49,930 nt of DNA from an uncultured Thermogutta sp. (GTDB lineage Bacteria; Planctomycetota; Planctomycetia; Pirellulales; Thermoguttaceae). The stretch lies in NCBI GenBank assembly GCA_937128505.1, contig CAKZMM010000068.1:1-49930 (forward strand), in the 5' to 3' direction. This document shows, piece after piece, positions 9,264-29,671 of the stretch (the first letter of the stretch is position 1; the number at the start of each line of letters is the position of its first letter). The notes beneath the pieces were generated by a model that was not told where the DNA came from, searched no databases, and was given only the letters and a program-made list of their open reading frames with translations. A program made the position numbers and the translations under genes.

Positions 9264-10727
9264 ATGCAAACATTCCAACGGTCGTTGGCTATCAATCCGA
9301 TTCCGAATGTGGTACAGACGCAAACTCAGCGACGCGATTGCCCCGGTCAATGTGGCATCAATGTGTATAAAAGAGGCTTTGAATTTCCGAGTTTTTGGCC
9401 ATTGCCGAAGGCAGCCTTGGGGCTTGCTTGCGCAGCGTGCCTAATGGTAAGTCTTCCAGCGGTTTGTTCCGAGCTCGTAGCCAATAAGCTGAATGAAGGG
9501 AACCTTGCCACCCCTCAACTCGGGGTAACCACGGTTTGCGAATTGGGCGGGCACCTGGTTGCGGTAGGGCTAAATCAAGGTCAACCGCTGGCTTTTACCG
9601 CTTGGGGTGAGCGAATCGCTTTTCCGCTCCGGGATACGCGAGAGGCCATTCCGGAGAACCTGCGACCTTTGCAATCGGAGCTCGATGCCTTTGTTGACGA
9701 GTGGTTAAAAGCGGAACTGCTGGCCCCGTTGCGGGTCGAAATAGGATTGTCGGGTTGCGAATATTTTTTTGACCAAAGCGGAGAGATTTTTTGGGCTCTC
9801 AGTCTGGCGTGGCCGCACCTTTCTCCAAGAACGCAGGGCGAGGTCCGCGAGTTTTTGGCGGCTCTTTGGGAAGAGTTCCCACCGTATGATGGCCGATGTT
9901 TTTTGCCGGTAGATCGCGGAGCTCGCCGGGAAGGCTACGTCCTGCCTAAGCTCCCCAGCCGTCGGGATGCGCGGGAGCGGCTACCTCATCCGTTCGCCAA
10001 CATGTATGGGATTTGGGCCTACGCTCACTACTTGGATGAATGGCCGAGGGTGCGAGAAAAATACGGGGAACTTCGGGGGTGCTGGCAATCGTTCAAGAAA
10101 TCAAAGCAGACTTGGTCCGCTCAAGAGAAGATGGAACACGAGGAACTTTTTGCCAATGCGTATTTGGGGGCGATGCTAGGTCTGATGCGGATCGGAAAGT
10201 ATTTAAACGACACTAAAACACAAGCCGAATTGGCATCGGAGGCTGACAAACTGGCCCAATGGACCCTCGAACGATTTCGCCGGAATACCGAGGAGCCGAT
10301 GCTTCCGCCGTTTGCCAACGTCAACGAATTCGATCGTTGGCGCGCAGAAGGGATGGGCGGGTTTTTCTGGCAGCAAACGCCTCACAAAGCGAAGCCCGTG
10401 CAGTTCCAAGGCCTGGTCCCGGAAGTAGGCAGTTGGCTCCGGGCAAACGCCCCAGATGCTGCGCGAAAGTATCTTGATTTTGTCGATCGGTCTTTGCCAG
10501 GCTGGTACTTAATGGCAGAAGAACGCCAGTTCCATTTCGGGGAAAACTACATCGATTTCCCCGATTTTTCTCTTTCGATCTTCCAGGCCAAAGCCTACCT
10601 CGGGGGCAGCCAGCCTGAGCAACTTGCCGAGTGGGTAGATATTCCGTTTTGTCCGGGAGATGCCTATTTTGTTGAGAAACTTGCCATCCTACTCCATGTT
10701 GCCGCCAACCAATCGCGGCTCAAATGA
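9264..10727 (+). CDS. exported protein of unknown function, 487 aa
   Basis: Not recognised. A hydrophobic segment at about residues 50-66 (ALGLACAACLMVSLPAVCSE) looks like a signal peptide or anchor, but 49 mostly polar residues precede it; a GTG at 9363 would give a more standard signal peptide, though the ATG at 9264 has GGGGAG 7 bases upstream. The rest is rich in aromatic and charged residues and predicted helices (VDEWLKAELLAPL, ANAYLGAMLGLMRIGKYLND, ELASEADKLAQWTLERFRR), with repeated patterns that could form an alpha/alpha-toroid like many polysaccharide-active enzymes. I see no catalytic signature. Its neighbour upstream is an exported propeller on the same strand; downstream it faces a convergent gene 88 bases away. 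Confidence 0.8.
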   Translation: MQTFQRSLAINPIPNVVQTQTQRRDCPGQCGINVYKRGFEFPSFWPLPKAALGLACAACLMVSLPAVCSELVANKLNEGNLATPQLGVTTVCELGGHLVAVGLNQGQPLAFTAWGERIAFPLRDTREAIPENLRPLQSELDAFVDEWLKAELLAPLRVEIGLSGCEYFFDQSGEIFWALSLAWPHLSPRTQGEVREFLAALWEEFPPYDGRCFLPVDRGARREGYVLPKLPSRRDARERLPHPFANMYGIWAYAHYLDEWPRVREKYGELRGCWQSFKKSKQTWSAQEKMEHEELFANAYLGAMLGLMRIGKYLNDTKTQAELASEADKLAQWTLERFRRNTEEPMLPPFANVNEFDRWRAEGMGGFFWQQTPHKAKPVQFQGLVPEVGSWLRANAPDAARKYLDFVDRSLPGWYLMAEERQFHFGENYIDFPDFSLSIFQAKAYLGGSQPEQLAEWVDIPFCPGDAYFVEKLAILLHVAANQSRLK

Positions 10728-12150: not shown

Positions 12151-14253
12151 ATATGAACCGGCGGGAATTCGCTTAGAACAGAAGACTTCCTGATCGACAT
12201 CTCACAGTTGACTATCGTTTGAACGGCGTAATTTCAATGATGTTTTTGGATGTTTTTGAGATAGCTATGGAAATAGCTCAGGGGGATGACACCATCGCCA
12301 AATCCACCCGTGTATAAACCTAAATCAAGCATACGAGCTAAATCTGAGTCAAAATCCTTTTGGATAAATCAACTCCCTGCGACTTAGCCCGGTAAACGTT
12401 GACCACCGCGAGGGACAACGATGCCGCGAAGGTTTCAGTGGCTATTCGCAAGCCGCTCGCCGTCAAAAGCCGAAGGTCTTGCCGAGCTTTTTCCTCGCCA
12501 TCAGGGCAAAATTGTTAAAAACCGAAAAATCCGAAAACGCCAAATTTAATTCAACTCAAACTGTTTGAACTATTACATCGCATCCCTTGCTTCGATGTAG
12601 CGCGTCGGTCCCAGATGCCTAAAGGTTTGAATTTCGGACTTTAGCGGATGCCGCTACCACTGCTCGTTCAATGATTCTAAGTTCCGTTGGGAAAATCGCC
12701 AGAAAATCCCGGCAACAACCCTACGCCTCGCTGTAATTCCTCATGGCCAAAAGAGTCCGCCGACAAATGACGCGGGTCACGGAGCTCGTGCAAGCATGGA
12801 ATCAGAACTTTCAGACTTTTTGAGGAGGTCCTAAGTCAACTGAGTTCCGTGTCAAAGCGAACCTTTCCGGTCGGTAAACGCCATCCAACGAACGCGAGAA
12901 AGAATTCTCCAATTATGCCAATCCAATGACATGTCTACCGTCAAAATAGTAGACTTCTGAACGCTTCGGTCAAGCCGGAAAAAAATCTGGGCTGGAGTAC
13001 GGCGCCTGACTGAGCTAACCGTGACCCTTCAAACCGTCCCAAATGATTGAATGAATAACAACTGCTTCAGGACGGTTTCACCCGGCAATCCGGCTCGGTC
13101 AAGCCCCCGCGCAGGAATGGGACCAAATTGCCAGTCGCATCGGTCCATCGCCTATGCAAACAAGCCCCCGCGCAGGAATCGGACAAAACTCAGAAACATC
13201 TGGTGGGGACGAGGCAAAACAAACCGAGTAAAAGGCTATTCGTTTGCGGAGCCAAAAGGTTGGGATTACTGGCGGGCGAAAATCTCGTGTAGTTTTTCGA
13301 TCGCTTTTTCGAAAAGGCTTTCAGGTTGTTTAGATAAAGTGTTTCCTATGTTTTAGGCCCTTTTCTCCCGAGAGGTTTTGGGTTCGCTACCAGGATCCTT
13401 CCTGACACGATAGCCGACTGTTCGTCTCGAGCACCGAGTTCAACTTATTCGTCCTCCACCCGCCTCATTCGTGTCAAATTGTCTCAATCGCCACCCTTAT
13501 GGTCGCTGACGCTGCATGTTCGGCCGGAAATAGCTTTTGCTTGTCTCATAAGCCTCTGAGTGAACCTTAGAACGCCTAATCTATCTTTCAACCCTTGAAT
13601 TTTGCTCTCAAGTACTAACTAAATTCTGAAATCTGACTTTAAGAAAGGCCGGAGCCAAACTGGTGGCACGGGTGAAGCATCCGCAACAAGAGTCCCGGCA
13701 CACCCGTAAAACCGTCTTTGAAACCGCCTTCCCGATTTGGACACCCGCGGATATCCGTCGATTTCCGTTATTTTTGACGAGATTCGATTTTTTCACGAGA
13801 TTCGATTCCTTCCACCTCCTAACCCACAGGCGACGAAGAATAACCACGTCGGAGTCAAGAAATGCCGCAGCCAGTTATGAAAGTTATGAAAAGGAGCAAG
13901 AAAGTCAACGGCCAATAGAACAAGCTAGCACATTTGCCTAGCAAGTACGTAGCCTAAGCCAAGGTTTCTCCGATGGAGCACTGAGGGCCACCTTGACCGA
14001 CAACCTGCTTGGGCTCAACCAGCAATCGCGTCGCTTAGCCTTGTCGGGAGCGCCTAGACCACCCGGCGGATCAATGCGACTCTCATGCGGGTCGCCTGCG
14101 CGGCACCCGTAGCAAAGTGCGTTCCAGAGAAAACAGGTTGCTTTTTGCCCTACACCAGCGGAAGTAAAAACCGATTCAAAAGGCCCCTTAAGGGAACAAG
14201 AGAGCTTTCAACCGGGAAACCGACAGCTCTATGGAGCCTATTACGGGAGCCTA
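12151..14253. other. 2.1-kb intergenic with repeats, no convincing gene
   Basis: All reading frames here are short and lack ribosome binding sites or family features. Structured elements seen: a 30-bp direct repeat with 61-bp period (13100 and 13161), a short tandem CGAGATTCGATT near 13779 and 13797, an inverted pair CACGGGTG / CACACCCGT near 13668 and 13700, and a tandem of GAGCCTATTACGGG near 14234-14262 just beyond the protease stop codon. The long spacer looks like decayed DNA. Confidence 0.45.
13100..13190. repeat. 30-bp direct repeat pair, 61-bp period (CRISPR-like)
   Basis: Copies at 13100-13129 and 13161-13190, both beginning CAAGCCCCCGCGCAGGAAT, match at 27 of 30 positions. The period is exactly 61 bp, as in the CRISPR array at 27.9 kb and as in type I-E arrays (29-bp repeat and 32-bp spacer). 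The CCCCGCGCAGG core resembles type I-E repeats. With two copies only, this is either a two-repeat fossil array or an unrelated duplication. Confidence 0.5.
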
Positions 14254-15956: not shown

Positions 15957-16623
15957 TTCTCCGCTCCGGCATCCCCAATTCAATAAATTAAATCTTGTGA
16001 TGGGGCGCCGTTTCGAATCCATGCCTTTTTGCCGATCCTTTACATATTACCCGGGAACCCCGTTTCCGCATTCTGCAAAACCTCGCCGACAACCGTTTGG
16101 GCAGGATAACAAGCCGAGCAGGAATCATTTTAACATAAGCGTCTACTTTGCCCCCGCAAAGTCAATGGAAATTCCTGCCGTACAGGCTTCCAACGCGCTT
16201 CCTAAACATATGCAAATTGAGCCCGTCGATTTCGGCCCTTTCCGGAACTGATAGCGCGATCGGACTTCGCGTCGCTCAACCGCCGCTCCCGAGCCAATCT
16301 TTCGACAAGTAATTCTCGGCCCGAAATTCCGAAAAGGCAAGGTTTTGCCGAATCTGGGCTTTTCAGACGTAAACTGCTGCAGAAGCAAATTTGACCCGTG
16401 TTTTTGCCGGCAAGCGACCGGAAGTGCAAGGTGCCGCAGTCAGGCGGCATCTACGTCCGGTTATTCCGCCCGGATAGCATCCAACGGAAGGGGCGTGCGG
16501 ATTTAACCGAATGTCGGATCGGCTTTCCTTTTAGATGGAAGCTATGCCCCTCAGTGATGTGACGTGGCATGCTATTTCCCATTCGTCCCTTTTGTCTCAG
16601 CGAGGAATCGGACAAGTGGTGAA

Positions 16624-23599: not shown

Positions 23600-26500
23600 C
23601 TACGCATTCCTCGGCGGAGCTACTTGCCGCGAAAGTTCGCGCAACCGGGAATCCACCCCCTCGGGCCGCAGCCACCCGAATCCCCGCCACTGGAGTTCCT
23701 GCATCAGTTGCAAGAAGTCTTCGCGAGACCACAAGGGTTGGCCCGGGCGTATGCGCCCGGCCGATATCCCCTTGGCCCTAAGCCGAAGGAATTGTTCCAG
23801 ATAAGGTTGAGCCTGCGCGTGCCAATCGGCCCAACCGGGAAACTCGTATTCCCAGTCGACCTCCCAGATTCGAATGGTTTCATCTTCGCTGGCACTGAGA
23901 ATTCGACAACCGTCGCTGCTGACACACACAGCCCAGATTGCCCCCGCGTGCCCCTGAAAGACACGTTGACACTGCGCTGAGGCCACCTCCCAGAGCCGAA
24001 CGGTTCGGTCCTTTCCGCCCGAAACCAGAAAGCGACCATCCGGTGTAAAACAGCAACTATTGATTTGCCCTTCGTGCCCCTCAAAAACTCGGACGCACTT
24101 CCCCGACGCCAAGTCCCACAATCGCAATGTCCAATCTTTTCCGGCGGAAACGGCCCAGCGACCATCTGGGCTACTAGCGACATCCATAATCCAGTCATTG
24201 TGTCCGGCCAAGCTCTGCAGCCGATCGGGAAACTGGGTATCCCAAACTAGAAGGTGAGGATCCTCGCCGGCAGAAATAAGCCGGGATCCGTCGGGAGTCA
24301 ACGTCGAGGCATGAACATGCCTCTCAGCTCCCCGAAATACGGCCACAGGTTGGACCGTTTCGATTTCCCAAGATCGTACCTGTCGATCCCACCCCGCCGA
24401 ATAGATCAATTTTCCATCCGGCGCCCAACACAGGTCACTCACAGGACTGCCGGTAATGAGCGTCCGAAGAGCCTCCCCCGATTCTGCATCCCAAATCCGA
24501 ATGGTCTTATCCCAGCCGGCTGAAGCGACGTATCGGCCGCTGGGACTCCACCGTACCACGGTGACACAATCCGTATGCCCCACTAGGATCCGGCGGCTTC
24601 CCTCCGTGCTATCGGTCGACCACAAGCGCACGGTAGCATCCGCGCCCCCGGAGGCGATCCAGCGATAATCGCTCCGCACATCCACGGATCGCACCTCGCC
24701 GGCATGTCCCTCGAGGACTTGCAGGCACCAGCCGTCGCGACAATACTTGCGAACACACCGGCTTCCAACCCGGTTCCAAAGTTCGATCGCCTCTCGGGTC
24801 ATTCGATAGCCGGGCAGGGTGCGGGCGGCCCGCACGAATTCCAAGGCTTCCGCAAACCGATCGTTCGCCAAGGCCATCCGGGCATTCAACACCAAATCCG
24901 CATATTGAGCTTGGGCCCGGCTCGCTTCCTCGGAGGTGGTCACATAGCACAAGAGAATCGGCGAGACGAAACGACGCTCGGGGTCAGTAAGCGCCCCCAG
25001 GTACCAAAGTCGTAGCGTCCGCCCTGTACTGCACGAGAGGGCCCAGCGGGCATCCGGGCTTAAATAAACACCGGTGATCGGGTCCGTATGCCCCCGGAGA
25101 GTGCGAAGACACCGCCCCGTATTTATTTCCCAAAGGCGCAAAGTTTTGTCACTGCTTCCGGAAAGAAGCCATCGGACGTCGCGGCTCACCGATAAGGAGC
25201 GAACCGGCCCCGTATGACCGCGGAAAACTCGCACCAAATCCCCGGTCTGACTTTCCCGAAGCTCGATCAGTCCTTCGTCGGTGACCACCAGCCGATGCCG
25301 ACCCTCGGGCAGTAGGATATTCCCGGCCGCTCCCCAGGGCACCTGTCGAAAAACTTCGGCCGTATCCGGCATCGCCGATTGCTGAACAATTAAGGTCTGC
25401 CCATTGCGCCGCCGCAATTGCCAGCGTCCATCCGGACTGGTGTTTGATGCGCCATCGAGCGTGGGCATTTCGATCGTGGTGAGGGTTCTGCCGGTAGCGG
25501 CTTCCCACAAACGCAGCGAGCGACCGTCTAGACCTGAAAGAACCCGATCCTGCCGCTCCCCGAGGAATACCCCCGTCACGAATGGAGGCTGGCCAGCAAA
25601 AGACCGTAAACAACGAGGGGCTTCGGGGGCCAACAATCGCACCTGCTCGATTGCCGCACGCACTTCGCCCCCACCGCCCAAGCGCTCCGCCTCCTCAAAG
25701 GCACTCAGAGCCGCCTGGGCCTCGTGACGCTCTAATTGAGCCAAGCCGAGGGCATAAAACGCCTCCCAAGACTGCGGCCGGGTGCGGCACAACTCCTCCA
25801 TCTGTTGGACAAATTCAGTGTCGGTGATCCGACCGTATCGCCACTCCAGCAAACCGCGGTTAAAGGTCACCTGCGGCTGCCACAAATGCTCTTCCCATGC
25901 CAGATTGAAAAGTCGCAGTGCCTCCTCGAGCTTTCCCAAGTCCAAAAGCGAAGCCGCCCGGTTGTTCAGCGTATCAGCCTTTAATTCCGCAGCCACCGGT
26001 TGCTGCCGGGGATATCGGTTTCCGACAGTTTCCCGATATATCTGCCGGAGCCAGTCGGAAATCTCCAGCATATCCCGCGGACGCTCCTCCGGGTTTTTCC
26101 GGAAACATCGGTTCAAAAGCTCTATAAGCCCGGCCGGCATTTTCGGCAAGAATCGTTCCGGGGGACCCTGCTTGCGGTAAGTTTCAAAAACCTCTGCCCC
26201 GGTGTGCCCACCGAATCGACAGGGCGTCCGTCCCAAGAACATCGCCAGCACCGTGAGAGCCCAGGACCAAATATCGGTACGCCGACTCAGCTTGACGCGA
26301 TCGTCCACCGGAACCGCCGATTCGGCTTGAATCGCTGCCTGAAGTTGCTCCGGCGAGCAATAAGCAGGCGTCATTCCCCCCCAACTGACGGCGAGGCTAG
26401 CTTTCGTTGAATCGCTCGGCGCCGATGTGGCTGCCCAACGGGCCCTTGCCAAACCAAAATCCGTCACCTTGGGAACTTCGCCCTGCATGAGCACGTTCTC

Positions 26501-27214
26501 CGGCTTTACATCCTGATGGATTAAGCCTTGCTCATGGGCATGATGAAGTCCCCAGGCAAACTGAATGGCAATGTCCAGGATTCGTTGTAGACTCCTCTGG
26601 CGCCCCCCCTCATACAGGCGGCGGTCGCGAATCCATTCCCAGAGGGTGCCCCCTTCGACAAATTCAGCGAATACCCGCGGAATTCCCCCGATTCGCCGCA
26701 CGTAATAGCAAGTGACGATATTGGGATGCAGCCCCAGGTTGATCCACGCTTCGCACTCGCGCTCGAAGCTTTGCTTTCCTTCCTCGCTGCGGAATTCCGA
26801 AACCTTCGGTGACTTGACTGCTAGGTCGATATTCCACCCATGATGATGAACTCGATAGACGACACCCATGCCGCCTTCGGCAAACGGTTTATCCGGCCGG
26901 AGAGGCTTCACTTCGTAGATGTCGAGAATGATATCGCCGATTTTCCAAGTTTCTGCCCCCTCGACATCTTCGCCGCGAGAGGTTTCGGCCGATCGGCGTT
27001 CTGACCGCCGAAAAGTACGGGTAACCGCCTCGGGACTGGGGCTAAGAACAAACCGTGTGTCGCACTTGGTGCAGTGACCCGTACGGCCTAGGTGGCTAGG
27101 ATCTACCGAATATTCTGAAAAGCATTTTGGACAAACAACCCTGACCACCCTGCTGGAGCTCCTGCCCCCAGGGGTAACTCGTCGGCCGCTAGTTCTGCCC
27201 CCATTAGCAGCCAT
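23600..27214 (-). CDS. Ser/Thr protein kinase with zinc ribbon, TPR and WD40 repeats
   Basis: Eukaryotic-like protein kinase of 1204 aa. An MJ0042-type zinc ribbon lies at residues 28-51 (CPKC...CTKC). The kinase domain spans about 100-395: glycine loop FAEGGMGVVY, Lys in LAVKSPK, catalytic HQDVKPEN (Gln replaces the Arg of HRD, a non-RD kinase), DFG in VTDFGLA and the APE-equivalent CSPEQ. A TPR-like region follows near 430-560 (NNRAASLLDLGKLEEALRLF), then about ten WD40 repeats to the end (for example HTGPVRSLSVSRDVRWLLSG, SDKTLRLWEINTG). No membrane segment, so cytosolic. The ATG at 27214 is preceded by GGGGGGAAATT; an in-frame start 42 codons upstream adds only a non-conserved stretch. 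The WD40 array is probably a docking platform; substrates are unknown. Confidence 0.94.
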   Translation of the reverse strand: MAANGGRTSGRRVTPGGRSSSRVVRVVCPKCFSEYSVDPSHLGRTGHCTKCDTRFVLSPSPEAVTRTFRRSERRSAETSRGEDVEGAETWKIGDIILDIYEVKPLRPDKPFAEGGMGVVYRVHHHGWNIDLAVKSPKVSEFRSEEGKQSFERECEAWINLGLHPNIVTCYYVRRIGGIPRVFAEFVEGGTLWEWIRDRRLYEGGRQRSLQRILDIAIQFAWGLHHAHEQGLIHQDVKPENVLMQGEVPKVTDFGLARARWAATSAPSDSTKASLAVSWGGMTPAYCSPEQLQAAIQAESAVPVDDRVKLSRRTDIWSWALTVLAMFLGRTPCRFGGHTGAEVFETYRKQGPPERFLPKMPAGLIELLNRCFRKNPEERPRDMLEISDWLRQIYRETVGNRYPRQQPVAAELKADTLNNRAASLLDLGKLEEALRLFNLAWEEHLWQPQVTFNRGLLEWRYGRITDTEFVQQMEELCRTRPQSWEAFYALGLAQLERHEAQAALSAFEEAERLGGGGEVRAAIEQVRLLAPEAPRCLRSFAGQPPFVTGVFLGERQDRVLSGLDGRSLRLWEAATGRTLTTIEMPTLDGASNTSPDGRWQLRRRNGQTLIVQQSAMPDTAEVFRQVPWGAAGNILLPEGRHRLVVTDEGLIELRESQTGDLVRVFRGHTGPVRSLSVSRDVRWLLSGSSDKTLRLWEINTGRCLRTLRGHTDPITGVYLSPDARWALSCSTGRTLRLWYLGALTDPERRFVSPILLCYVTTSEEASRAQAQYADLVLNARMALANDRFAEALEFVRAARTLPGYRMTREAIELWNRVGSRCVRKYCRDGWCLQVLEGHAGEVRSVDVRSDYRWIASGGADATVRLWSTDSTEGSRRILVGHTDCVTVVRWSPSGRYVASAGWDKTIRIWDAESGEALRTLITGSPVSDLCWAPDGKLIYSAGWDRQVRSWEIETVQPVAVFRGAERHVHASTLTPDGSRLISAGEDPHLLVWDTQFPDRLQSLAGHNDWIMDVASSPDGRWAVSAGKDWTLRLWDLASGKCVRVFEGHEGQINSCCFTPDGRFLVSGGKDRTVRLWEVASAQCQRVFQGHAGAIWAVCVSSDGCRILSASEDETIRIWEVDWEYEFPGWADWHAQAQPYLEQFLRLRAKGISAGRIRPGQPLWSREDFLQLMQELQWRGFGWLRPEGVDSRLRELSRQVAPPRNA

Positions 27215-28891
27215 AATTTCCCCCCAATGATTCCGCGAATATCCATATTTACTCAAAAACGTACTTTTTCCACCCACCGCTGCACGAAAAGTCATTCCGG
27301 AGGCAGATCGGGGCCAGGAACCGATCGGAGACGATAACAACCCCCTCCCCGTCTTCTGAAAATCATCTTAAATCCTGGTGCTTGGAGTTTCAACCGGCGG
27401 CGTGCACTTTCGAATGGCCCAATACCCCCCATTTTGATGATAATTAACCCGAAGGAGGAACGAATTCTCGCTTTGTGAACTTCTAGCACGGGTTTTAATT
27501 GTGCGATCGGTCGCAATTCGGCAATCAGCCGCCGTAAGGAGGGAGATCTCGAAGCGCATCCAAGCATTTGTCACCAAAAAAACAGTACTCATTTATCCGA
27601 CAATTATTTATCCGAAAAGCCAATATTTGGAATGAGAAGTAATTAGGTCAGGAAAGGAGGTGAAAAAGCCTTATTTGACGATTGACTTCAGAATGTAGTC
27701 GAGACCACTTCGAAATCATTGAGGACGACTGCCGCGGCCAAGATTTATCATGCTTACCCAAGTTAGCATTCAGTAGCACCATTCCAAGACGTAGAAATCC
27801 GTAACCTTAATGCCTTCGAAAAAACTGGAGTCTCCTCACACGCGTGAAATGCGCATTAATGACCTTAATGGAAAATAAAAACACGAAGGGTTGTTCCCGC
27901 ACGCGGAGAGAGCGCTCCTGCTATCGAGCACAACCTTGGCGGCACCTATGGTTGTTCCCGCACGCGGAGAGAGCGCTCGACGATGAGCGTCAGCACTACG
28001 ACTAAAGAGGGGTTGTTCCCACAATCGGATGGCGCGCTCAGCGTTCCTACTACCCCAGGTCTCCCGCGATCAAAAGTCACGAAAATAGAAAGACTGTCGT
28101 CTGCCCTCATAGCCGCGAGTCGGTTTCGGATCCCCTAAGCCCCTCGGGCCGCGGGCAATGATCGGGTAAAACCAACCGGGCAGTTTCTCCGCAACCTCGC
28201 CCATTGATATGATATTTGCGGCACACACACGGTTAGCTTTTCGTGAAACCCGCATTCATGTTTCGACCCATCGCCCAAACGTTTGAGAGTGGGAGTCGCG
28301 CAGGCAGCTTTCCTGCTCGAGGTTGACGGGGGGAACGTTTCGGCTCTTCTGGATGTGTATTCTGTTACTGGGAGTTCTGCCCCCCCAACTCATTAACAAG
28401 CCAATTCAGCCCGCAGCATTTCTATACGCGCAAAGTTCCCCCTCACAAATCATCGAGCCCAAAACTCGGTGCTATCGTCCCCAACACCCGTGCACGGACT
28501 TTTTTTTGCGCCCTACGGACTCTTTTTGGGATTCAACCCCGTGCCGCGTTCCAGCTTCATAATGGTCCGAAATGCAAGAACCCTCAAATTTTCCCACACC
28601 CGCTTTTCCCACACCCGCGTGTTTCTTTTTCACTCGCTCCTGAAATGAGAGATTCGCCGTTCTAGCCGCCGGTTGAAATAGCCTTACCCCGAGTTTATGG
28701 TGTGAAAAATGGATTCTGCTAAGGTATACTTTTGCCAGTGACATCCGCAAAGAAGGTCCGACCTAAATCCAATCCGCCCAACCAGCCGTGATTTCCGGAA
28801 GGTTTTTAGCGATTAATGCGTGAAACCCACGCTTTTCCTTGCCGCAGGTTGCAGCCATCTGGGGATAGTGTGATTTTTGAGGAGGCCTAAC
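27215..28891. other. 1.7-kb intergenic holding a CRISPR array
   Basis: Apart from the CRISPR array, no gene is supported. A frame at 28323-28562 begins with a signal-peptide-like stretch but has no usable ribosome binding site and ends in unnatural sequence. A perfect 15-bp tandem, TTTTCCCACACCCGC twice, lies at 28589-28618. Confidence 0.45.
27828..28039. CRISPR. minimal CRISPR array, 29-bp repeats and 32-bp spacers
   Basis: Two identical 29-bp repeats at 27889-27917 and 27950-27978 (beginning GGTTGTTCCCGCACGCGG and ending GAGCGCTC) and a third, degenerate copy at 28011-28039 (23 of 29 matches; both ends kept, middle changed). Spacers are 27918-27949 and 27979-28010, each exactly 32 bp and unrelated to each other. 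A further, strongly decayed copy lies in phase at 27828-27856 (16 of 29, with CACGCG and GCGC aligned). Geometry is that of type I-E arrays and the GTTCCC start fits that class when read on the plus strand. The sequence before the first good repeat is AT-rich and could instead be a leader. No cas gene is in the window, so it is an orphan array or depends on cas genes elsewhere. Confidence 0.85.
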
Positions 28892-29671
28892 ATGCTGAGT
28901 AGCAACTGCATAAGGCGTCTTATGATAGGCGCGCTCCTGATCGCAATTGCGGGAGGGTCGTCCGTCCCTTGGCAAAACGCGGCTTTTGCCCAAGAAAAAG
29001 AGCCGCCCAAGGTTCGCATCCTATTGACCATCGGTGGGCACGGCTTTGAGGAAGAGCCGTTTTACCAAATGTTCGCCGCGATGCCCGGTGTCACTTACCG
29101 CATAGCGAATCTCCCCCGCGATGCCGCTTTGCTCAAGCCCCCGCTGCGGCAGGAGGTTGATTGCCTGGTGATGTACGACATGGTTCGCGAAATCCCGCCC
29201 GAATGCCAGGCAAGCTTCTTGGAGTTGCTGCGTCAGGGAATCGGCGTCGTATCACTTCACCATAACCTGGGGGCGCATCCAGGTTGGGAAGAATTCCGCA
29301 GGATCATCGGCGGCAAATTCATGCTCGAGCCCGGGGTGATTGACGGCCGGTCGTATGCCCAAACTCCTTGGTCCCACGGGGAGCATCTGAAGATCCAAGT
29401 GGTCGATCGTGATCACCCCATCACTCAGGGGGTAGGGGATTTCGAGATTCATGATGAAACTTACGGGATTTTCTACACGGCCCCCAATATTCACGTCCTT
29501 TTGAAAACCGATCATCCGAAGAATAACCCGATCCTCGCTTGGACAACCGAGTACGCCGCAAGTCGCGTGGTTTACCTTCAGCTCGGGCACGACCGCGGTG
29601 CCTACGAAAATCCGAATTACTGCAAGTTGCTCTACCAAGCAATCCTTTGGGCCAGCGGAGTCAAACCATGA
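28892..29671 (+). CDS. exported ThuA-domain protein
   Basis: ThuA-like (class I glutamine-amidotransferase fold) protein, a family linked to trehalose and other sugar use and very common in planctomycetes, with no firmly known reaction. A signal peptide covers residues 1-32 (LMIGALLIAIAGGSSVPWQNAAFA). The domain follows: VRILLTIGGHGFEEEPFYQM, DCLVMYDMV, GVVSLHHNLGAHPGWEEF, ILAWTTEYAASRVVYLQLGHD. The usual ThuA His-rich motifs are present. The ATG at 28892 has GAGGAGG 6 bases upstream; a TTG 15 bases earlier is not the start. Its stop overlaps the next start (ATGA), so the two genes are translationally coupled and both products are exported, suggesting they act on the same substrate. Confidence 0.9.
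   Translation: MLSSNCIRRLMIGALLIAIAGGSSVPWQNAAFAQEKEPPKVRILLTIGGHGFEEEPFYQMFAAMPGVTYRIANLPRDAALLKPPLRQEVDCLVMYDMVREIPPECQASFLELLRQGIGVVSLHHNLGAHPGWEEFRRIIGGKFMLEPGVIDGRSYAQTPWSHGEHLKIQVVDRDHPITQGVGDFEIHDETYGIFYTAPNIHVLLKTDHPKNNPILAWTTEYAASRVVYLQLGHDRGAYENPNYCKLLYQAILWASGVKP

What the first reader, a model, noticed from the sequence alone, without database searches (positions are those of the whole stretch)
27828..28039. Orphan two-spacer CRISPR array eroding at both ends
Seen: two identical 29-bp repeats, one 23/29 copy at the right and one 16/29 copy in exact phase at the left, with 32-bp spacers, and no cas genes within 20 kb either side. A type I-E-like geometry with near-identical inner copies and decayed outer ones suggests a shrinking or frozen array, or a mini-array kept for another purpose, such as a crRNA-like regulator. 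Known: outer repeats of arrays decay first, usually only at the leader-distal end; decay on both sides is unusual.
Basis: partly seen in the sequence, partly recalled or inferred. Interest (0 to 1): 0.62.

Follow-up and report, generated by a model that had tools for sequence, protein, structure and literature searches.

The report
Scattered mini-CRISPR arrays across one genome
The tiny orphan CRISPR array is real, and it is one of dozens of tiny arrays scattered between the genes of one bacterium, each with its own private repeat, as if the CRISPR machinery had been writing immune memories all over the chromosome instead of in one place.

Summary
The array is real: two identical 29-bp copies (27889, 27950), a 23/29 copy (28011) and a diverged in-phase copy (27828), spaced 61 bp. 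It is not an isolated relic. The genome carries a complete type I-E cas locus on another contig, with its own array and a different repeat. A scan for 28-bp direct repeats at many spacings found a sharp excess at exactly 61 bp: 38 pairs against a mean of 1.35 at control spacings in 654 kb, and 11 against 0.40 in 287 kb fetched afterwards. These make 39 small arrays in 17% of the genome, one more of them in this window (13100-13188). Each has its own repeat, loosely like the canonical one. 39 of the 41 unmerged arrays lie outside long ORFs; 43 spacers tested have no second copy in the genome. A family member without I-E shows no excess and one congener a weaker one; another congener and two other I-E carriers show none. 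Best explanation: repeated ectopic spacer integration by the resident Cas1-Cas2, making 'neo-CRISPR' arrays that can grow and then decay. Transcription and immunity are untested; no empty site was found.

The parts
27828..27856 (.). Diverged in-phase repeat copy (16 of 28 matches)
   Evidence: chance of >=16 at a random place 0.67%
27889..27917 (.). Repeat copy 1, identical to copy 2 over 29 bp
27918..27949 (.). Spacer 1 (32 nt with a 29-bp repeat, 33 with 28)
   Evidence: a 22-nt core has no exact match in IMG/VR; no second copy in the own genome
27950..27978 (.). Repeat copy 2
27979..28010 (.). Spacer 2
   Evidence: a 22-nt core has no exact match in IMG/VR; no second copy in the own genome
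28011..28039 (.). Repeat copy 3, 23/29
13100..13127 (.). Second mini-array of the window: repeat copy 1, a different private repeat
   Evidence: lag scan, 26/28 at lag 61
13128..13160 (.). Its 33-nt spacer
   Evidence: a 22-nt core has no exact match in IMG/VR; no second copy in the own genome
13161..13188 (.). Second mini-array: repeat copy 2

Best explanation
The array is one of many small 'neo-CRISPR' loci made in this genome by ectopic spacer integration. The Cas1e-Cas2e integrase of the complete type I-E system on contig C102 inserts ~33-nt fragments not only at its own array but at scattered intergenic sites that loosely resemble the I-E repeat. It duplicates the local ~28 bp at each site, so each locus gets a private repeat. 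Some loci then gain further spacers at whichever copy is still a good substrate, with no fixed leader, and the arrays decay by mutation. Shown: the geometry, the excess at 61 bp, private repeats, scarcity in long ORFs, a motif like the canonical repeat, cas genes over their cut-offs, and spacers (43 tested) without a second copy in the genome. Inferred: that Cas1-Cas2 did it, that the spacers are foreign, the order of events, and that the sites were single-copy before.
For: Pairs of 28-mers with >=22/28 identity at lag 61: 38, against a mean of 1.35 (max 8) at 20 control lags in 654 kb; 11 against 0.40 in 287 kb fetched afterwards. Identity is ~0.9 over 28 nt and ~0.25 outside. Array flanks are not homologous to each other apart from overlapping neighbours and one 24-nt repeat, so no carrier element is seen. 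Repeat motif 11.2 bits against 6.1-6.6 in 6 null sets; 30 of 39 repeats reach the null's 95% point for likeness to the canonical repeat. The 9 arrays with 27-28/28 identical copies are only 11-16 of 28 like the canonical repeat, hard to get by drift from it. Eight I-E cas genes, each over the cut-off of at least one NCBIfam model. G026, same family without Cas7e: 0 pairs >=22/28 at lags 60-62 in 400 kb; congener G001 with I-E: 2/4/1 pairs at lags 60/61/62 against 0.00 at control lags in ~406 kb without its canonical array.
Against: No empty site was found among the held sequences. No protospacer was found, so no PAM and no proof that spacers are foreign. Private repeats fold only slightly better than their own shuffles (-6.8 against -6.0 kcal/mol; 21 of 39 below), far weaker than the canonical -13.5, so function is doubtful. 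Congener G002 has Cas1 and Cas7e but no lag-61 pair >=22/28 outside its canonical arrays in ~214 kb; G019 and G030 with Cas7e showed none in ~166 kb, so having I-E is not enough. With ORFs >=120 aa, 8 of 30 arrays fall inside one. The genome is a fragmented assembly, and the sampled stretches, mostly contig starts, were not random.
Confidence: 0.72

Rival explanations
1. Dispersal and drift: fragments of the canonical I-E array were scattered long ago by rearrangement, and each copy drifted to its own repeat while still taking up spacers.
For: Private repeats keep a loose likeness to the canonical repeat (30 of 39 at or over the null's 95% point), and some arrays have 4-6 copies with large internal divergence, so they look old.
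Against: The six two-copy arrays with 27-28/28 identity have repeats only 11-16 of 28 like the canonical one; no shared flanks mark a dispersal event.
Confidence: 0.15
2. The array is kept as a source of crRNA-like RNAs that guide Cascade to own genes (CreTA antitoxin, or self-regulation of cas genes).
For: Degenerate ectopic repeats are described as a common feature of creA and similar RNAs (abstract and passages of PMC9458426); another mini-array lies ~0.8 kb upstream of cas3 on C102.
Against: Spacers match their own 1.5-kb flanks no better than spacers of other arrays do: mean longest exact match 8.36 against 8.25; 8 of 73 reach 10 nt against 8.3% of controls; the two window spacers reach 8 and 7. 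Tens of such arrays with unrelated spacers do not look like tuned regulators (inference).
Confidence: 0.07
3. An ordinary leftover array of a lost second I-E system, unrelated to the other 61-bp pairs.
For: Repeat unlike the canonical one; no Cas1 or Cas7e on the contig.
Against: It would need dozens of lost systems in one genome, since nearly every array has another repeat.
Confidence: 0.05

Closest known systems
Off-target ('neo-CRISPR') spacer integration by Cas1-Cas2 (Nivala et al. 2018; its content is recalled, the paper is not held; passages citing it seen in PMC11788318, PMC9456107 and PMC11687729)
   Same: Spacer insertion at non-array sites (as the citing passages say); repeat-spacer-repeat made at sites that resemble the native locus (recalled)
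   Different: As recalled, described after overexpression in E. coli and as a few putative natural cases; here 39 arrays in 17% of one natural genome, ten with 4-6 copies
Canonical type I-E CRISPR array (C102, repeat GTTCTCCCTGCACACGCAGGGATGATCC)
   Same: 28-bp repeat, 33-nt unique spacers, 61-bp period
   Different: No Cas1 or Cas7e on the contig, private repeat, weak hairpin, copies diverged at both ends
CreTA (creA) modules
   Same: One or two degenerate ectopic repeats outside arrays in a genome with type I cas genes
   Different: No local exact complementarity of the spacers above control; toxin RNA not searched for
Virus-borne mini-CRISPR arrays (passages of PMC8616872)
   Same: One or two spacers
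   Different: Neighbours look like cell genes (kinase-WD40, ThuA, secretin), and the repeat does not mimic the genome's canonical repeat

Membership tests
Type I-E CRISPR array | Direct repeats of 28-29 bp at a 61-bp period with unique 32-33-nt spacers | tested here: met
Type I-E CRISPR array | Repeat shared with a cas-adjacent array of the genome | tested here: not met
   16 of 28 to the canonical repeat, 17 with wider shifts
Type I-E CRISPR array | Repeat hairpin for Cas6e | tested here: inconclusive
   window repeat -6.7 (plus strand) and -5.1 (minus) kcal/mol against -13.5 for the canonical one
Type I-E CRISPR array | Transcription and processing to crRNA | not testable with these tools
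   no RNA data
Ectopic (neo-CRISPR) integration product | ~28-bp duplication around a ~33-nt insert, with a repeat private to the locus | tested here: met
Ectopic (neo-CRISPR) integration product | Resident I-E integrase | tested here: met
   Cas1e and Cas2e over the NCBIfam cut-offs; activity not tested
Ectopic (neo-CRISPR) integration product | Sites resemble the native repeat | tested here: met
Ectopic (neo-CRISPR) integration product | Empty site with a single repeat copy in a relative or paralogue | tested here: inconclusive
   9 non-self matches of the joined flanks among the held sequences, none an empty site; no close strain was at hand
CreTA | Spacer partly complementary to a nearby toxin promoter | tested here: not met
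   exact-match test on 1.5-kb flanks equals control; mismatch-tolerant seeds not tested
CreTA | CreT toxin RNA | not tested
   no search made
Virus-borne mini-array | Lies in a virus or provirus | tested here: not met
   8 large ORFs scanned against PHROGs: 5 without a match, 3 matching kinase, M13 protein IV (secretin family), protease and two families of unknown function; Pfam names secretin, trypsin-PDZ, GATase_3, kinase-WD40, ThuA, FHA

The most novel reading that the evidence does not exclude
This lineage keeps a distributed CRISPR memory: its I-E integrase has loosened its tie to one leader and writes foreign spacers into repeat-like sites between genes all over the chromosome, where neo-arrays are born, extended at internal repeats, used for a time and lost, so that all stages of array birth can be seen in one natural genome.
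Probability: 0.22. Interest if true: 0.92.

Novelty: new variant of a known kind. Interest (0 to 1): 0.72.

Why it matters
How new CRISPR arrays arise is open; off-target integration is known, as I recall it, mainly from overexpression. A natural genome with about 40 small arrays per Mb sampled, each with its own repeat and at many stages of decay, would let the birth, growth and death of arrays, and the site preference of a wild integrase, be measured directly. It would also mean that tools that look for one conserved repeat per genome undercount such loci.

Tried and rejected
Same repeat elsewhere: no exact match in genome contigs, none in 59 relatives at up to 3 mismatches; no Rfam match in the window. 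Self-derived spacers: the 43 spacers of the first array set, joined and searched in the whole own genome, gave their own loci plus one 18-nt match. Phage origin: no match in INPHARED for the first 296 nt of the joined spacers, i.e. 9 of 43, nor an exact match in IMG/VR for 22-nt cores of three window spacers and one canonical spacer. Loss of the HU/IHF family as cause: not supported, PF00216 has two matches in this genome and at least one in all 60 searched. A mobile carrier: array flanks are unrelated. Contig ends: 8 of 30 arrays lie within 300 bp of a contig end against 0.87 expected; I first took this as strain variation, but six contig starts carry a shared ~25-nt sequence that I read as the edge of an insertion sequence (inference), two of them with an array close by, so I draw nothing from it. 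Ectopic arrays near I-E loci of other taxa: 45 neighbourhoods, 743 kb, 8 candidates, which by eye are register shifts of the local canonical repeat; this covers at most 10 kb on each side of cas1. Syntenic array sites in congeners: only short matches in or near genes. Smaller counts at lags 72 (8) and 76 (6) in G000 were listed but not worked out. Rows dropped: low-complexity pairs in the lag scans from then on (except one search's print-out of other taxa, which used the same filter); in forming array sets 5 of 35 groups and 2 of 13 groups, those with only lag 60 or 62 pairs below 25/28; the canonical array was excluded. Because only lags 60-62 were used to define arrays, the spacer lengths (33 nt in 38 of 43) are partly set by the method; the free spectrum of lags is the fair evidence.

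Full report
What is there. The window is a whole contig (C68) of a 5.58-Mb, 198-contig genome. At 27828-28039 lie four in-phase repeat copies at exactly 61 bp: 16 of 28 matches, two copies identical over 29 bp, and one of 23/29. They sit in a ~1.3-kb gap without a long ORF between a kinase-WD40 gene (23600-27340, minus) and a ThuA-domain gene (28877-29671, plus) that point away from each other. The 28-nt core has two places in the genome at up to 3 mismatches and none in the 59 relatives of that search.

The genome is not without cas genes. Cas7e has one match, on contig C102; Cas1 matches lie on C102 and C122. The C102 locus holds cas3, cse1, cse2, cas7e, cas6e, cas5e, cas1e and cas2e, each over the curated cut-off of at least one NCBIfam model, followed by an RNase_H_2-domain gene. 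Its array (repeat GTTCTCCCTGCACACGCAGGGATGATCC, three copies held, at the contig end) has the same 61-bp period. The closest Cas1 relatives in named genomes are two Thermoguttaceae assemblies at 73% and 70% identity; their contig lengths equal those of the congeners G002:C7 and G001:C16. The window's repeat matches the canonical one at 16 of 28, or 17 with wider shifts.

The unexpected part. A scan of the window for 28-mers matching themselves at a fixed distance showed a second pair at 13100, 26/28, again at 61 bp, with another repeat. I then took stretches of the genome. In 654 kb, pairs with >=22/28 identity number 38 at lag 61, 8 at lag 60 and 2 at lag 62, against a mean of 1.35 (max 8) over 20 control lags between 50 and 72; at >=26/28 there are 16 at lag 61 against 0.20 (canonical array left out). 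In 287 kb fetched afterwards as a check there are 11 at lag 61 against 0.40. Grouping, dropping weak groups (5 of 35 and 2 of 13), extending in phase and merging gives 39 small arrays in 942 kb, 17% of the genome: 21 with two copies, 8 with three, 6 with four, 2 with five and 2 with six. From the control lags I expect roughly five of the 61 pairs at lags 60-62 to be chance. Simple scaling gives about 200 per genome, but the stretches were mostly contig starts and not a random sample.

What the arrays share. Copies agree at about 0.9 over 28 nt and at about 0.25 outside, with sharp edges; the 28-nt window itself was chosen by score, so the exact edge is soft. Nearly every locus has its own repeat; oriented by expectation-maximisation, the repeats of the 30 arrays of the first set share a motif of 11.2 bits (six null sets: 6.1 to 6.6) that reads much like the canonical repeat. 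30 of 39 reach the 95% point of random 28-mers for likeness to the canonical repeat. With ORFs of 120 aa or more, many of them doubtful, 8 of 30 lie inside (random 0.665). Flanks of different arrays are unrelated apart from overlapping neighbours and one 24-nt repeat. None of the 43 spacers of the first set has a second copy in the genome beyond an 18-nt match.

Where else. G026, same family without Cas7e, has no pair >=22/28 at lags 60-62 in 400 kb. Congener G001 has 2, 4 and 1 pairs at lags 60, 61 and 62 against 0.00 at the control lags, its canonical array left out; one of the seven lies inside a long ORF. G002 has one lag-60 pair, inside an ORF, and no lag-61 pair outside its canonical arrays. 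G019 and G030 have none at lag 61 outside the canonical array and two at lag 60, in ~166 kb together. So the excess is seen in two of three members of this genus and not in the other I-E carriers sampled; I-E alone does not bring it.

How it most likely works. A type I-E integrase inserts about 33 nt and duplicates about 28 bp (established knowledge, recalled; the 61-bp period is seen in canonical arrays of other Cas1e loci). That regions within I-E repeats act as rulers for the place of integration is stated in passages of PMC6895254, which also reports in-vitro off-target integration by a type II integrase at sites that resemble its leader-repeat junction. Integration outside arrays in cells is cited to Nivala et al. 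2018 in passages of PMC11788318 and PMC9456107 and PMC11687729; the paper itself is not held, and that it found a few putative natural cases is recalled. The arrays here have the expected scar: private repeat, 28-bp duplication, ~33-nt insert without another copy in the genome, motif like the native repeat, intact integrase genes. The youngest-looking arrays (27-28/28 identity) have repeats only 11-16 of 28 like the canonical repeat, which fits birth from local sequence better than drift from a dispersed canonical array.

Decay at both ends. Of 10 arrays with four or more copies, 6 have their most alike neighbours strictly inside, with less alike copies on both sides, as in the window (neighbour identities 19/28/26 in L062, 17/26/23 in L066, 16/28/22 in the window); 4 have them at an end. 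I read this as insertion at whichever copy is still a good substrate, without a fixed leader. Ten arrays are few, and weak outer copies depend on a threshold of 16 of 28.

Function. The private repeats fold only slightly better than their shuffles (21 of 39 below the shuffle mean) and far less well than the canonical repeat, so processing by Cas6e is doubtful for many. Spacers do not match their own neighbourhood above control. Whether the arrays give immunity, or are scars, is open.

Limits. One assembled genome, non-random stretches, my own ORF calls, no close strain, no RNA, no protospacers. In the listings of ten literature searches I saw no report of a natural genome with such a number of ectopic arrays; they cover open-licence papers only, and three listings were capped (20 of 62, 8 of 8,479, 15 of 498).

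Noticed in passing
L022 (G000:C102) 10249-10451: A mini-array of three detected copies plus a fourth 52 bp further, ~0.8 kb upstream of cas3 and reading the other way; its repeat ends in a handle like the canonical one. Could be a self-regulating mini-CRISPR; not tested.
   Followed up: partly
L079 15648-15979; L051 14253-14585: Six-copy arrays whose neighbouring repeats fall into two related but clearly different sequences in nearly unbroken 61-bp phase, as if insertion had happened at two places of one array.
   Followed up: partly
L023 (G000:C122) 16102-16287: A separate array with 37-nt repeats about 2 kb from another cas1 gene: a second CRISPR type in this genome.
   Followed up: no
starts of L049, L051, L060, L071, L080, L196: The same ~25-nt sequence lies near the start of six contigs, probably the edge of an insertion sequence that breaks the assembly; two of these starts (L049, L060) have a mini-array close by.
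   Followed up: partly
L022 234-1055: An RNase_H_2-domain (possible exonuclease) gene follows cas2e in this genome; by eye, similar genes stand beside the I-E loci of G001 and G002 in the DNA printed.
   Followed up: no
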